Assembly: GCA_030065755.1 (NCBI GenBank)
Contig: JASJDA010000003.1
Location: 27,541-91,540 of the forward strand
Direction: 5' to 3'
Origin: Prochloraceae cyanobacterium
Lineage (GTDB): Bacteria > Cyanobacteriota > Cyanobacteriia > Cyanobacteriales > JASJDA01
DNA length: 64,000 nt
Each line of letters begins with the position of its first letter. Positions within the stretch are counted from its first letter, which is position 1. Below, piece after piece: positions 13,562 to 64,000 of the stretch. A model generated the notes under the pieces. The model was not told the DNA's origin, searched no databases, and saw only the letters and a program-made list of their open reading frames with translations. Position numbers and translations under genes: made by a program.

Positions 13562-14632
13562 TTAAAATGCTGTCTTAGGTATTCTTTCCACTGAATCAAC
13601 AATGCCTTGGAAATGATTGGTAAGGACTTCTTGAGAATAAGGAACAACGCCAGATTCTCCAAACCATCCATCAAACATTTGCTTAAATTCAGGGTCTTCA
13701 ATAAGATATCCTTGAATCGCCCTTAAAATACTATAATTAACAAAATCTCGCCAGTTAGAATCATTTTCTCGTAGCAAGCAGGCGTAGGATTCGCGACTAA
13801 TTAGATCGTCTGGCGGGACAATTTCCCAAGTATCTGGTTTAGTGGCTCTTTGTTTGAGTGCCTCCAGAAGAATTCCATCACCAGCATAGACATCAATTTT
13901 TCCCTGTTGTAGTTGAGAGAAACCATCCTTACCATTTGCCACAGTAACCAAATTTAGTCGAGTGTCAAGAACTTTGAGAACATTTTCAGTGGTTGTATTT
14001 CGCTCAACCCCAATGCGCAGAGAACGCAAATCTTTTAGAGAATCCAACTTGGTTCCTTTTTTTACCAATAATTGAGTTCCAGTGACAAAATAACTGAGGG
14101 AAAAATCCACATATTTTTCTCGATTCCAAGTAAAGGTAGTCGGACCGCAGGAAATATCAACTTTGCCATCCATAACCAAATCAAAACGATTTTGCGTATT
14201 GACTTCTATTAATTCCAGCTTGAGGGGCTTTTTTAAGGCTTTTTCTAGTTGGCTTTTTACAACTGTCATCATGTCAATTCCGTAGCCTACCCATTTCCCC
14301 TTTTCATTGACATAACCAAAGGGTTCGGCATCCTTCCAAGCACCTGCTCTTATAACTCCCGTGCGCTTAATACGCTCTATAGTAGTTTCTGCGAGACTGG
14401 AGGATTGTAGAAAAATACTGAAGACAAATGCTAAAAAGCCAATATAGAAAAATTTGTGGTTAAAGATTCTGTTCAATATTTTAACTCCTGAAACACTATT
14501 ATTTTTCGTTTTTGACAGAGTATCTATTTCTCTAGAAATCCTTCTAGCTGTAAGATAACGATTGCGAAACAGAAGGGCATTAATTGTTTTTGAAGCTAGT
14601 AAAAAATTTCCTTTGCTTGACATAAAATGCAA
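13562..14632 (-). CDS. grrP: Orphan extracellular solute-binding-like protein, GrrP-type
   Basis: ABC-type amino-acid SBP fold motifs (VDISCGPTTFTWNREKYVDFSLSYFVTGTQLLV); 2-bp gap to grrM; no permease or ATPase nearby. Confidence 0.75.
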   Translation of the reverse strand: MHFMSSKGNFLLASKTINALLFRNRYLTARRISREIDTLSKTKNNSVSGVKILNRIFNHKFFYIGFLAFVFSIFLQSSSLAETTIERIKRTGVIRAGAWKDAEPFGYVNEKGKWVGYGIDMMTVVKSQLEKALKKPLKLELIEVNTQNRFDLVMDGKVDISCGPTTFTWNREKYVDFSLSYFVTGTQLLVKKGTKLDSLKDLRSLRIGVERNTTTENVLKVLDTRLNLVTVANGKDGFSQLQQGKIDVYAGDGILLEALKQRATKPDTWEIVPPDDLISRESYACLLRENDSNWRDFVNYSILRAIQGYLIEDPEFKQMFDGWFGESGVVPYSQEVLTNHFQGIVDSVERIPKTAF

Positions 14633-29954: not shown

Positions 29955-31025
29955 TTATATTGCTATTTGCGTACCATTAGGCATAATTGTTTTTTCTAAA
30001 GATGCAGCTAGAAAATTAGTTTTGCTGAGGTTGGCTCCAATAAGATTAGCTTCATTGAGGTTAGTTCCACTCAAATTAGCACCCTTTAAATCGCTCAGTA
30101 ATAAACCAGCTTGGAATAAGTTGGCTCCAGAGAGATTAGCATTACATAGTTTAGCATTAAGCAAGCTACTTCCTGTTAGGTTAGCTTGAGTTAATTGAGT
30201 TTGTTTGAGGTTGGCTGACTTGAGTTTTGCTTCTTGTAGATTCGCTTTATTTAAGTTAGCACCAGTTAAATTAGCTCCTTCTAGATTAGTTCCTTCTAGA
30301 TTAGCTCCTTCTAGATTAGCTCCTTTTAAATTAGCTCCCCGCAGATCGGCTAAACTTAGATCGGCTTGCTTTAAATTTGCTTTTTGCAGATTGGCTCGAT
30401 TTAATGAAGCTCTAATTAATATTGTTTGGGTGAGATTGGCTCTACTTAAATTAGCTTCTGAGAGTATCGCTTTTGTGAAAATGGCACGCTCTAAATTAGC
30501 ATCACAAAGAATTGCTCTGGTTAGAGTAGCTGCGGTGAGATTGGCCGATCTTAGTTGAGTTTCGCTCAGTTGGGCTTGAATTAAACTACTGCTAACTAAA
30601 CAGGCATTGCTGAGATCCGCTTTGTAGATATTAGCATGACAAAGAATTGCACCACTTAAGTCTGCTTCTACTAAAATCGCTTCCGTTAGTATTGCATTAG
30701 ATAAGGTAGTCTCAACTAGTTTGGCTTTAGATAAGTTTCCTTGACTCAAATCTATACTATTTAAGTTAGAAGCAATTAATTTAACTTCACTTAAATTTGC
30801 TCCTCTCAGCTTTGCTTGGCGAAGATTGATACGATTGAGATTAGCTTTAACTAACTTTGCTTTAATCAATTTGATTCCAGTAAAATTACGCTCTCCTTTT
30901 CTATATCTTGTCAAAATTACATTGCCACTGTCTAGATTGCTGGTATTCATAAAAAAGGTAAAAACAGTATGTTTTTTACTGATAAAGTTCTGTATTTTTC
31001 TCTGATATCTCAAAAATAGAGCCAA
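29955..31025 (-). CDS. Pentapeptide repeat protein
   Basis: About 50 A(N/D)Lxx repeats, e.g. ANLKGANLEGANLEGTNLEGANLTGANL. Confidence 0.95.
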   Translation of the reverse strand: MALFLRYQRKIQNFISKKHTVFTFFMNTSNLDSGNVILTRYRKGERNFTGIKLIKAKLVKANLNRINLRQAKLRGANLSEVKLIASNLNSIDLSQGNLSKAKLVETTLSNAILTEAILVEADLSGAILCHANIYKADLSNACLVSSSLIQAQLSETQLRSANLTAATLTRAILCDANLERAIFTKAILSEANLSRANLTQTILIRASLNRANLQKANLKQADLSLADLRGANLKGANLEGANLEGTNLEGANLTGANLNKANLQEAKLKSANLKQTQLTQANLTGSSLLNAKLCNANLSGANLFQAGLLLSDLKGANLSGTNLNEANLIGANLSKTNFLAASLEKTIMPNGTQIAI

Positions 31026-40211: not shown

Positions 40212-40597
40212 GGGGCCGCAACGGTTTCGACAGGTTGGCGAAAACTATCCCGTGATGCAGGTCGAGAGTGAGTCTCCTCTCGTAAATCAAAGACTCAAAC
40301 AATCTGTAAATGCGAACAACATTGTAAGATTCGAGCGTAAGGCAGTAGCTATTGCCTAGGTCATAACTCTTAAGACTTGCTCACTTTTAGCTTGACTCCG
40401 TTAAGGGCTAAAAGTTAACCCCCAACGGATGCTCTAGTTAGGTTCCTCTGGTGAGCTAACTAGTTAAGAATTTACCAGAGCATCCCACCGTCAGGGATAA
40501 TCGACGGTTCCCGCCTGAGGATTAGAAAGGCTAAGCCTGTGAAAGATCGGAAAGTCAATACCCAATTTGGACAGCAGTTCGACTCTGCTCGGCTCCA
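40212..40597 (+). ncRNA. ssrA: tmRNA (ssrA); tag reading ...ANNIVRFERKAVAIA*
   Basis: ggggccgcaacggtttcgacagg 5' end; 3' TPsiC-like ggacagcagttcgactctgctcggctcca pairing with 5' ggggccg; tag ORF gcgaacaacattgtaagattcgagcgtaaggcagtagctattgcctag. Confidence 0.95.
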
Positions 40598-40786
40598 TTT
40601 TTCACTTCTTCCAACTGCCTAAACCTCTAGGGATATTTTGACTTGGGGAATTCCTCCTTCTTCACAGGTTTCCCCAATTTGTTTAAAATTCCAAAGCAAA
40701 ATAGTTCGCGGGGACTGGTCGCGAACTATTAAAAAGACTATTCTATACTAAGCAACTATTGTTTCAGGTGCGGAAAGTTGAAAAAC

Positions 40787-60301: not shown

Positions 60302-62278
60302 ATGCGCTTTAAAACTCTGTTTTTTTGTGGTCTGATCTGTTTTGCTTGCGCTGCAAATAGCCAAAAAAGCATCGCTTCTCCAGAACCCAAGACCGATCCT
60401 GTAGTAACTACAACTAATAGTAACCCTCTTCAATCCCCCTCAACCCTGAAGATTGAATTGTCAGGGGTGCTTTTACCTTTAATCTTTGACAAACAGTCAG
60501 AAGAAGGAACTTTTGCCCCAGCATCGCTACAGTGGTACGAAATAGCACAAAATTCTCAATTAGGATTTAATAACCAAACCAGATACGGACCCCTCACCAA
60601 TAAGCTTTTCCAACAGCCAACTGCACAGCATTTGCGTCGAGGAGAAGTTGTTTTCAATATTATCAATCGTTCCTTTTTTACCTCAGATTCGGTCGAAGAA
60701 GACGGAACAGCAGCCTATCTAAACTTTGGCGCTACTTGGGGTATTCTAGATAACCTAGAATTTACTATAGAATCTCAAAGAGTGGATACTGCCTTTCCAA
60801 CAAGACAAGGGCAATTTCGCGCTAATAGAAATCCGAGAGGAGAGAATAACTTTTTATCCGAACAAGAATTAAGCTTTCAACTCAAACAAAGATTTTGGCA
60901 CAACGAATCGGAAACACTGGCTTTAAGCGGTGTTGCTGCTGTTTCTATAGGCGATCGCGGTTTTTCTTTTCGCGATCGAAATGGGAGAATAGTTCAAGAC
61001 GGTTCGCGATCGGGGGCAGTTCCAGCCTTTGCCATTCCTTTTACTGCTTCTGTTAACGATCGCGCCTATTTCACTTTTTCGCCTACTATAGCCTTCTTTG
61101 ACGAAGAAAATGCCCTTCACATCCATCGACCACCTGTTGCCAATCCTGGATCTTTTGGCACTACTTTTGGTTTAACAGGTGGGATTTCCTTTATTGTTTC
61201 CCCGCGTTTAGTTCTTTGGGGAGATGGTTTCGTTCCTCTTACTGGTAATAATAGTATCGATCGAGATTCCGGTCTTCCAGATAAAACAGTAGCTTTGAAT
61301 GCTGGGGTGCGCTATTTGGTCAACCCTCGTTTGGGATTAGACATATATGCTTCCAATACCCAAGGTAGTAAAATTCCTCTTGCCTTAACAGCCGATCGAG
61401 ACTGGGCGGCTTTAGGAGTAGGATTGTTATTTATGCCAGAGTTCGTACCTGCTAATCGTCGTTACTCAGATAGTTTCGCATCATCTGACGATCGCGCTGA
61501 AGAACCTTTCACTACTGACGGGTTGGGCTTTTTTGATGGGGGTACCGTACCCAGTGGAATGTTTAAGTTTCACTTACAAGGAGGAAGTCAAGGGGTTCTC
61601 ACTGCTTTACGCTATGGGGTACTCAAGGATTTCGAGTTAGGGGCTTATCTAGATTACATTTCGGGAGACGTAGACGAATCAGAACAAGGGTTTAGTGCCA
61701 AGATCCGACTGGTGAACCAAGCAGAAAACTATCCCTTAACCGTAAGCTTAGGCGCAACTCTCGGTATAACTGACGAAGTTTTTACCAATTTTAGTAACAA
61801 CGACAAAAGGGAGTTCGATCGACGCAATATAGATGCAGGGGTTCCCTTTTTCTTCCAACGAGATAATGAAGAGGGACGAAGGTTTGTTGCTACCGTCTCC
61901 TTACCAATAAATTACGATTTTGAGAATGGTGCAGGCATCTGGTTAACTCCTATAGTGGGTTTCGCACAACGGTTAGGAACGGAAATTGCTGGTTTTAATG
62001 TTGGCGGTTCGGCACCACTGCCTCTAAATTTTAGTCTCATAGGAGAAGTAGGGGCTAATTTTGCCGGTCGGGGTAATGCCTTTATCGGCAATAGACTAGA
62101 AGACCGCATTCCTTGGAATGTCGGTTTTCAATGGAACCCCGAACCTTCTTTAAATAGTGTTAATCCTGCTGTGGGTATATACGTAACTAACCGCGTGGGT
62201 TCTTCTACTTGGCATCAACTGCGAGTTAGAGAACAAGATGAGATCGCAGTGGGAGGTAATTTTTCATTATCTTTCTAA
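60302..62278 (+). CDS. Secreted/outer-membrane beta-barrel-like protein
   Basis: Signal peptide MRFKTLFFCGLICFACAANSQKSIA; 658 aa beta-rich sequence ending in aromatic Phe (NFSLSF). Confidence 0.6.
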   Translation: MRFKTLFFCGLICFACAANSQKSIASPEPKTDPVVTTTNSNPLQSPSTLKIELSGVLLPLIFDKQSEEGTFAPASLQWYEIAQNSQLGFNNQTRYGPLTNKLFQQPTAQHLRRGEVVFNIINRSFFTSDSVEEDGTAAYLNFGATWGILDNLEFTIESQRVDTAFPTRQGQFRANRNPRGENNFLSEQELSFQLKQRFWHNESETLALSGVAAVSIGDRGFSFRDRNGRIVQDGSRSGAVPAFAIPFTASVNDRAYFTFSPTIAFFDEENALHIHRPPVANPGSFGTTFGLTGGISFIVSPRLVLWGDGFVPLTGNNSIDRDSGLPDKTVALNAGVRYLVNPRLGLDIYASNTQGSKIPLALTADRDWAALGVGLLFMPEFVPANRRYSDSFASSDDRAEEPFTTDGLGFFDGGTVPSGMFKFHLQGGSQGVLTALRYGVLKDFELGAYLDYISGDVDESEQGFSAKIRLVNQAENYPLTVSLGATLGITDEVFTNFSNNDKREFDRRNIDAGVPFFFQRDNEEGRRFVATVSLPINYDFENGAGIWLTPIVGFAQRLGTEIAGFNVGGSAPLPLNFSLIGEVGANFAGRGNAFIGNRLEDRIPWNVGFQWNPEPSLNSVNPAVGIYVTNRVGSSTWHQLRVREQDEIAVGGNFSLSF

Positions 62279-62293
62279 CAAAACAAAAATGCT

Positions 62294-62545
62294 GTCAGCA
62301 CCCCGCACTAAAGTGACGGGGCTTCGTGCCCTCCTTTAGTTAGTTGACCAGCTTGAGTTCTTTTTGAGAACTACGTTATTGGCAAGAGTTGAAGACCTAC
62401 CTTGAAATGCGTGCCAGTTTCAAGCTCTAGAACTTAAAAGTTAAACAGTTTTACGAGGGGTAAAACAGTGCTTTTGAGATAGTACCGACCAATAACTTTA
62501 GCGAGGCAAACATTATCCAATATTTGGAGAAATAGAGACGCAAAA
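62294..62545 (+). ncRNA. IscB omega-RNA scaffold region
   Basis: gtcagcaccccgcactaaagtgacggggcttcgtgccc hairpin followed by a 5' structured leader up to iscB. Confidence 0.7.
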
Positions 62546-63871
62546 ATGTCTAATAAAGTATTTGTAATAGATACCAACAAGCACCCATTAGAACCATGCT
62601 CGCCAACAGTAGCTAAAAAGCTACTAAAAGCACAGAAAGCTGCAATATTTAGACAATATCCATTCACAATTATTTTAAAGAAAGCAATTGGGAAACAGGA
62701 GCTAAAAAAATGTCAATTAAAACTTGACCCTGGATCTAAAACCACTGGAATAGCAATAATTCAAGAAAATCAACTTATTTGGGCAGCAGAATTAACGCAC
62801 CGAGGACAACAGATAAAAGACGATCTAGAATCTCGCTCCTCTCTACGACGTGGACGTAGAGTCAGAAAAACTAGATACAGAAAACCAAGATTTCTCAATA
62901 GAACTAGAGAAAAAGGGTGGTTAGCTCCTAGTTTAGAACATCGGGTTCTAACGACATTAACTTGGGTTAATAAGTTAATTAAATTCTGTCCTATTGATTC
63001 AATAGCAACAGAACTAGTTAGGTTTGATACTCAGAAAATAAACAATCCTGAAATATCAGGTAAACAATACCAACAAGGAACACTTTATCAGTACGAGGTT
63101 AGAGAATACTTGTTAGAAAAGTTTAATCGAACCTGTGCTTATTGTGGTGTTAAAAATGTTCCTTTAGAGGTTGAGCATATAGTACCCAAGTCCAAAGGGG
63201 GAAGTAATCGAATATCTAATTTGACTATTGCCTGTGTACCCTGCAATCAAAGTAAATCTAATCGAGATATCAAAGATTTTTTAGCTAAAAAACCATCTTT
63301 GCTCAAAAAGATATTAACTCAAGCTAAAGCGCCTTTAAAAGATGCAGCAGCAGTTAATTCTACGCGGTGGAAACTGTTTAAATCACTCAAAGAAACTGGC
63401 GTACCTGTAACAACTGGTACGGGAGGACAAACCAAGTTTAATCGTACTCAACAACAACTAGAAAAACGTCATTATTTGGATGCTGCTTGTGTTGGGGATA
63501 CTCCTGATTTAAAGATACTGACCCGAGAACCATTACTAATTAAATGCGGTGGTCATGGTCAACGACAAGTTATTCATGTCGATAAACATGGTTTTCCTAG
63601 ACTAAACAAGACAGGAAACCAGGTGAGAAAATCAGCTCATATTAAACAAGTTAAAGGTTTTCAGACTGGAGATATTGTTAAAGCTGTTGTCGCTCGCGGA
63701 AAAAAAGTTGGTCTTTATTTGGGTAAAGTAGCTGTTAGAAGTAGTGGTTCTTTTAACATCAAAACTCTAAAAGAAACAGTACAAGGAATTAGCTATAGGT
63801 ACTGTACTTCTATACACCGAAAAGATGGATATATTTATGGATTCGTTCCCAAGAATTTTCACGGCGGTTAA
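62546..63871 (+). CDS. iscB: IscB RNA-guided nuclease (RuvC + HNH)
   Basis: PLMP-like N-term (VIDTNKHPLEPCSPTVAKKLLKAQKAAIF); RuvC-I LKLDPGSKTTGIAI; Arg-rich bridge helix; HNH CAYCGVKNVPLEVEHIVPKSKGGSNRISNLTIACVPCNQSK; RuvC-III HYLDAACVG. Confidence 0.9.
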   Translation: MSNKVFVIDTNKHPLEPCSPTVAKKLLKAQKAAIFRQYPFTIILKKAIGKQELKKCQLKLDPGSKTTGIAIIQENQLIWAAELTHRGQQIKDDLESRSSLRRGRRVRKTRYRKPRFLNRTREKGWLAPSLEHRVLTTLTWVNKLIKFCPIDSIATELVRFDTQKINNPEISGKQYQQGTLYQYEVREYLLEKFNRTCAYCGVKNVPLEVEHIVPKSKGGSNRISNLTIACVPCNQSKSNRDIKDFLAKKPSLLKKILTQAKAPLKDAAAVNSTRWKLFKSLKETGVPVTTGTGGQTKFNRTQQQLEKRHYLDAACVGDTPDLKILTREPLLIKCGGHGQRQVIHVDKHGFPRLNKTGNQVRKSAHIKQVKGFQTGDIVKAVVARGKKVGLYLGKVAVRSSGSFNIKTLKETVQGISYRYCTSIHRKDGYIYGFVPKNFHGG

Positions 63872-63905
63872 AACCGCTCGTGTCGTTTTTCCGAGAGATG
63901 TTTTT

Positions 63906-63989
63906 ATTTTTATTAGGGAAGTCTTTTAACGATAACTTTATTGCTTCGTATATAACTGAACTGCTGATGAAGACTTCCCTAATAAAAAT
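63906..63989. repeat. Inverted repeat pair (20 bp arms, about 44-bp spacer), MITE-like or terminator-like
   Basis: atttttattagggaagtctt (63906-63925) and aagacttccctaataaaaat (63970-63989) are exact reverse complements. Confidence 0.8.
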
Positions 63990-64000
63990 GAACTTTTTGT

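What the first reader, a model, noticed from the sequence alone, without database searches (positions are those of the whole stretch)
62294..63871. Intact IscB with omega-RNA leader; predicted guide from the adjacent gene end
Seen: the full IscB domain set (PLMP-like, RuvC-I/II/III, bridge helix, HNH) and a 250-nt 5' leader starting with a gtcagcacccc hairpin. Established: in IscB loci the omega-RNA scaffold lies upstream of iscB and the guide is the sequence just 5' of it. Inference: the guide would be about tctaacaaaacaaaaatgct (62274-62293), overlapping the stop of the upstream OMP-like gene.
Basis: partly seen in the sequence, partly recalled or inferred. Interest (0 to 1): 0.65.

Follow-up and report, generated by a model that had tools for sequence, protein, structure and literature searches.

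The report
Mobile IscB nuclease inserted before start codon
This is a mobile DNA element of a cyanobacterium that carries an RNA-guided DNA-cutting enzyme (IscB, a relative of the ancestor of Cas9) and its guide RNA; its family tends to insert immediately in front of the start codons of host genes, apparently keeping them translatable with a ribosome-binding site at its own end.

Summary
Window 62294-62516 is a full-length HEARO/omega-RNA (RF02033, 149 bits), followed by an intact 441-aa IscB (NF040563, 470 bits).

The contig stops inside it, in a nested MITE-like palindrome. A 126-bp exact overlap and conserved gene order place contig C123 next. There the element ends at ...GTGAGGTTTAC|ATGACAGCC, exactly at the start codon of the next gene, so the predicted target is the left-flank guide plus an ATGA TAM.

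RTGA follows 46 of 52 right ends anchored without using that motif. It matches the NTG(A) TAMs published for IsrBs. A natural empty site in a relative shows clean insertion between flank and ATGA with no duplication.

At 42 of 63 right ends this RTGA opens an ORF of at least 80 aa (40 with a nearby upstream stop), against 6-12% of background RTGA sites. Most such ends carry a Shine-Dalgarno-like motif.

The IscB system is known. The start-codon docking is the interesting part. The transposase was not found, and nuclease activity is inferred.

The parts
60302..62278 (+). Host gene upstream, 658-aa OMP-like protein; its stop lies inside the predicted guide
   Evidence: ORF; no Pfam or NCBIfam hit; homologues in relatives, four of them followed directly by the gene found on C123
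62274..62293 (+). Predicted guide (left flank, host DNA). The exact 5' end is not known; 16-20 nt is taken from published IscB guides
   Evidence: Directly 5' of the sharp left end; differs in every copy. Own genome holds no perfect guide+RTGA match; best non-self match has 2 mismatches
62294..62516 (+). omega-RNA scaffold (HEARO, RF02033) and left end of the element (GTCAGCACCCC...)
   Evidence: 149 bits, full length
62546..63871 (+). iscB, 441 aa; C-terminus about 7 residues longer than the sister copies C64, C182 and C51, which stop after ...YGF
63863..63878 (+). Terminator-like hairpin at the 3' end of iscB (GGCGGTTAAAACCGCT, then T-rich)
   Evidence: consensus match only
63906..63989 (.). 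Nested MITE-like palindrome inserted in the right end; related copies sit in the omega-RNA of copies C66, C449 and C346
   Evidence: Arms 63906-63923 and 63972-63989, DNA fold z = -7.2, other copies
63990..64000 (+). First bases of the right-end remainder (gaactttttgt); cut by the contig end. Continuation on C123 (L112) to base 175, then ATGACAGCC, start of a 421-aa gene
   Evidence: 126-bp exact overlap with C123 and conserved gene order

Best explanation
An IscB/omega-RNA (OMEGA, HEARO) mobile element of about 1756 bp. Its transcript carries host sequence from the left flank as the guide, followed by the HEARO scaffold, and IscB uses it as guide RNA. The element inserts between an arbitrary left flank and a 4-nt RTGA on the right, without duplication. 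Any copy of the locus that lacks the element therefore reads guide + RTGA, a perfect target with TAM, while the occupied locus reads guide + GTCA and has no TAM. IscB would cut the empty allele and the break would be repaired from the occupied copy, which keeps or spreads the element. Because ATGA/GTGA is also a start codon plus one base, and the right end usually carries a Shine-Dalgarno-like GAGG/GGAG a few bases before the junction, insertions directly before start codons are tolerated or favoured: the element becomes the 5' leader of the gene and supplies its ribosome-binding site. Shown: anatomy, left end, RTGA, empty site, enrichment at start codons. Inferred: transcription, RNP assembly, cleavage, use of the element's ribosome-binding site, and selection as the cause of the enrichment.
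For: omega-RNA model hit, full length; IscB equivalog; 21 HEARO copies in the own genome, seven with an iscB homologue at 59% identity or more. Shared left end with different 5' flanks in the own genome and eight other genomes. RTGA at 46 of 52 right ends anchored on the element sequence alone, conservation falling to background at the fifth base. Natural empty site in G013 for the copy in front of an apparent gatC gene in G040: collinear alignment through the junction, ATGA retained, no duplication. Window contig C135 continues into C123: exact 126-bp overlap, and four relatives have the same two genes adjacent without an insert. 42 of 63 right ends abut an ORF of at least 80 aa starting at the RTGA, 40 with an in-frame stop close upstream; null 5.7% under the stricter criterion, 12% of intergenic sites for ORF length alone. 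Shine-Dalgarno-like motif in 31 of 42 such ends against 16% background. 7 of 61 insertions scored as interrupting a long ORF, null 64%. Published TAMs of IsrBs, including two cyanobacterial ones, are NTG(A) (PMC9581776).
Against: No expression or cleavage data. No TnpA with matching ends was found in the own genome among 16 Y1 loci. 21 of 63 right ends are not followed by an ORF of 80 aa or more. Shine-Dalgarno-like motifs are also present in 13 of 22 non-start right ends, so the motif may belong to the transposition site. Joining C135 to C123 is inferred; three other contigs begin in the same repeat.
Confidence: 0.85

Rival explanations
1. Start-codon docking is purely a by-product of selection: insertion at RTGA is random, insertions inside genes are lost, and those before a start codon survive because the right end happens to look like a ribosome-binding site. 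No targeting of start codons exists.
For: Insertions that interrupt long ORFs are depleted (7 of 61, null 64%). The left flank shows no motif and no excess of native Shine-Dalgarno sequence (8 of 42 against 16%). The Shine-Dalgarno-like motif is also present at non-start right ends.
Against: Start codons are still enriched about five-fold among intergenic RTGA sites, although a place between promoter and start codon should be among the less tolerated ones unless the element really serves the gene.
Confidence: 0.5
2. The elements are domesticated 5' leaders: the omega-RNA or IscB now regulates the downstream gene, for example by guided binding near the start codon, rather than acting as a selfish homing element.
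For: Many copies lack iscB but keep a full-length omega-RNA and sit before apparent housekeeping genes.
Against: The left-flank guide matches the empty site, and the occupied locus lacks the TAM, so the host's own copy is not a target. Catalytic residues are intact here. Sites differ between genomes, with no shared regulon seen.
Confidence: 0.12
3. The omega-RNA and iscB are an inactive relic.
For: The right end is interrupted by a MITE, iscB has lost its ancestral stop codon, and no cognate transposase was found.
Against: Full-length scaffold with a high score, intact ORF, several sister copies with long iscB frames, two of them carrying the same MITE.
Confidence: 0.15

Closest known systems
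IscB/omega-RNA (OMEGA) systems; HEARO RNA and ORF (RF02033; PMC9755519)
   Same: Same protein family, same RNA family, same order omega-RNA then iscB, guide at the 5' end, 3' TAM
   Different: TAM predicted as RTGA from insertion sites, unlike NTAAA (OrufIscB) or NWRGNA (optimal for engineered OgeuIscB; both PMC13180657); frequent location exactly before start codons
IsrB (for example DtIsrB and the cyanobacterial CwIsrB and DsIsrB; PMC9581776)
   Same: NTGA or NTG TAM 3' of the target, related omega-RNA, RuvC core
   Different: IsrB lacks the HNH domain and nicks; this protein has HNH
IS200/IS605 transposons with TnpB (PMC8612924, PMC11870625)
   Same: No target duplication, short flanking motif doubling as TAM, guide taken from the flank, nuclease thought to prevent loss or drive spread
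   Different: Guide from the left flank, TAM on the right; no tnpA in the element and none with matching ends found

Membership tests
IscB (OMEGA) | PLMP domain, bridge helix, RuvC split by HNH, catalytic residues | tested here: met
   residues read from the sequence against the aligned solved IscBs
IscB (OMEGA) | Structured omega-RNA directly upstream of iscB | tested here: met
   HEARO covariance model, 149 bits, full length
IscB (OMEGA) | Guide is the host sequence 5' of the scaffold and differs between insertions | tested here: met
   DNA level only: shared left end, different flanks
IscB (OMEGA) | Target-adjacent motif 3' of the target, present at the right junction | tested here: met
   DNA level: RTGA in 46 of 52, retained in a natural empty site
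IscB (OMEGA) | RNA-guided DNA cleavage | not testable with these tools
IS200/IS605 transposon | Insertion without target-site duplication next to a short motif | tested here: met
IS200/IS605 transposon | Subterminal hairpins at the ends | tested here: inconclusive
   Hairpin seen near the right end (CCCTATTT/AAATAGGG), but the fold of the 64-nt end is not better than shuffles (z -0.97)
IS200/IS605 transposon | Y1 TnpA in the element, or in trans with the same ends | tested here: not met
   None in the window's element; none of the 16 Y1 loci of the genome carries these ends. A diverged transposase acting in trans is not excluded, so the element is not filed as IS200/IS605

The most novel reading that the evidence does not exclude
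A lineage of IscB elements whose TAM doubles as a start codon (RTGA) and whose right end carries a ribosome-binding site, so that they dock as translatable 5' leaders in front of essential genes, with the guide homing on the empty allele of that same start codon.
Probability: 0.45. Interest if true: 0.7.

Novelty: new member of a known kind. Interest (0 to 1): 0.48.

Why it matters
The natural role of IscB is still largely inferred. Here the guide, the TAM and the empty target can all be read from natural insertions, which makes the homing model directly testable. The start-codon docking suggests how such elements can reach tens of copies in one genome, including in front of apparent housekeeping genes. 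If the element's own end really serves as ribosome-binding site, this is a simple safe-harbour strategy: the nuclease's recognition motif is at the same time the signal that makes the insertion harmless.

Tried and rejected
TnpA with the same ends: none found by pattern in 20 loci, 16 of them TnpA loci. Perfect target of the window guide in the own genome: none; two mismatches at best, apart from the locus itself. Contigs C299, C204 and C291 as continuation of the window: they begin in the same repeat, but their overlaps are shorter; the C299 gene has no match next to the OMP homologues, and C204/C291 show only short frames at the junction. The gene downstream on C123 has no Pfam or NCBIfam hit, so it is not named. 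First automatic choice of right ends picked false RTGA sites inside iscB or the omega-RNA in some copies; a filter on the sequence upstream of the junction was therefore used and the motif re-tested with anchors that do not include it. The original papers of 2009 (HEARO) and 2021 (IscB omega-RNA) are not held; I recall, unverified, that the 2009 paper already noted ATGA/GTGA at HEARO insertion sites. Library searches for HEARO or IscB with ATGA or start codon gave no paper describing start-codon docking. Sigma-70-type promoter scan: nothing upstream of the omega-RNA, and fewer matches than chance over the region.

Full report
What is there. Rfam's HEARO model matches 62294-62516 over its full length with 149 bits, and the ORF 62546-63871 encodes a 441-aa protein that reaches the NCBIfam equivalog for RNA-guided IscB with 470 bits, with RRXRR and HNH domains in Pfam and alignments to solved IscB and IsrB structures. 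HEARO RNA and omega-RNA are the same thing (PMC9755519). Hits to related loci are mostly cyanobacterial, the best in Xenococcaceae MAGs.

A multi-copy mobile element. The own genome (8.46 Mb, 455 contigs) holds 21 HEARO matches, 14 above the gathering score, and seven iscB homologues of at least 59% identity, counting the window's own, plus one fragment near a contig end. Several copies have an omega-RNA without iscB. Most copies begin with GTCAGCACCCC or a close variant, and the sequence before it is different every time. The same holds for 80 further loci from eight other genomes of the order; 31 of 60 genomes searched have HEARO, up to 31 copies each.

The right end. The window ends where contig C135 ends, inside the right end of the element. 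A MITE-like palindrome (arms 63906-63923 and 63972-63989) sits there, and the same palindrome family occurs in other copies, even inside their omega-RNA. Four other contigs start within this repeat. C123 overlaps the window's end by 126 bases without mismatch, the longest of the four. Its first gene, 421 aa, is the gene that directly follows the OMP-like gene in four relatives (58-62% identity). I conclude, as inference, that C123 continues the window. The element is then 1756 bp and ends ...CTCCCGTGAGGTTTAC, followed by ATGACAGCC, the start of that gene.

RTGA is the insertion motif and the predicted TAM. Anchoring only on the element's last bases, 46 of 52 right ends are followed by ATGA or GTGA, and conservation drops to background at the fifth base. 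In G013, of the same genus as G040, the site of copy G040_L193 is empty: the two flanks align through the junction with a single 1-nt gap, ATGA is kept, and nothing is duplicated. A second comparison (G044 against G017) is collinear but too diverged to show the junction exactly. IsrBs, including those of Crocosphaera and Dolichospermum, recognise NTG or NTGA (PMC9581776). The occupied locus has GTCA instead of RTGA after the guide, so it should be protected; the empty allele should be cut. That is the homing logic reported for TnpB (PMC11870625); for this element it is inference.

Docking at start codons. Of 63 clean right ends, 42 abut an ORF of at least 80 aa that starts exactly at the RTGA, 40 of them with an in-frame stop within 120 nt in the left flank. 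Among background RTGA sites in the same loci 5.7% meet that criterion; among sites outside long ORFs 12% are followed by an ORF of 80 aa. The proteins look like true N-termini; by reading, not by a family search, they include petA, gatC, ftsH, map, sufD, purK, gpsA, tatA and fur homologues. Seven of 61 insertions score as interrupting a long ORF, against 64% of background sites; six of the seven are on the strand of, and begin with, the docked gene itself, so they may be upstream extensions of it. The right end carries a Shine-Dalgarno-like motif in 31 of 42 docked and 13 of 22 other ends, against 16% background; left flanks are near background. The simplest reading is random insertion at RTGA with selection for insertions in which the element's end replaces the ribosome-binding site. 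Active preference for start codons is not excluded.

Limits. The insertions were chosen mostly from the best HEARO hits of eight genomes, plus the own genome; the null uses mechanical ORFs, not curated genes. The clean-end filter used only sequence upstream of the junction. No Y1 transposase with matching ends was found, so the element is not filed as IS200/IS605. Nothing here shows transcription or cleavage.

Verdict. The added value is the predicted TAM, the natural empty site and the start-codon docking, which I did not find described in the papers searchable here, though I recall without being able to check that ATGA/GTGA was noted in 2009.

Noticed in passing
63906-63989: MITE-like palindrome of about 84 bp (ATTTTTATTAGGGAAGTC...GACTTCCCTAATAAAAAT), present in the right ends of copies C64 and C51 and inside the omega-RNA of C66, C449 and C346; it probably broke the assembly.
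   Followed up: partly
L113 (C387), L114 (C10), L119 (C423): Right ends of the element family directly before start codons, without a recognisable left end upstream: solo right ends or elements with another left end.
   Followed up: partly
L036 (C289) from 3001: An omega-RNA cut after about 85 nt (...GACTACGTT) and continued directly by ATGAAAACTACAC, start of a 333-aa ORF; C435, C363 and C415 are cut in similar ways.
   Followed up: partly
L238 (C440), L239 (C409), L240 (C84), L241 (C334): ORFs of about 390-410 aa that match only the first 165 residues of IscB at 30-33% identity; possibly IsrB (no HNH match).
   Followed up: no
40212-40600: tmRNA gene (RF00023, 137 bits).
   Followed up: no
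13562-14632 and 29955-31025: Two ORFs of the same length (356 aa, TTG start, minus strand); possibly copies of one mobile gene.
   Followed up: no
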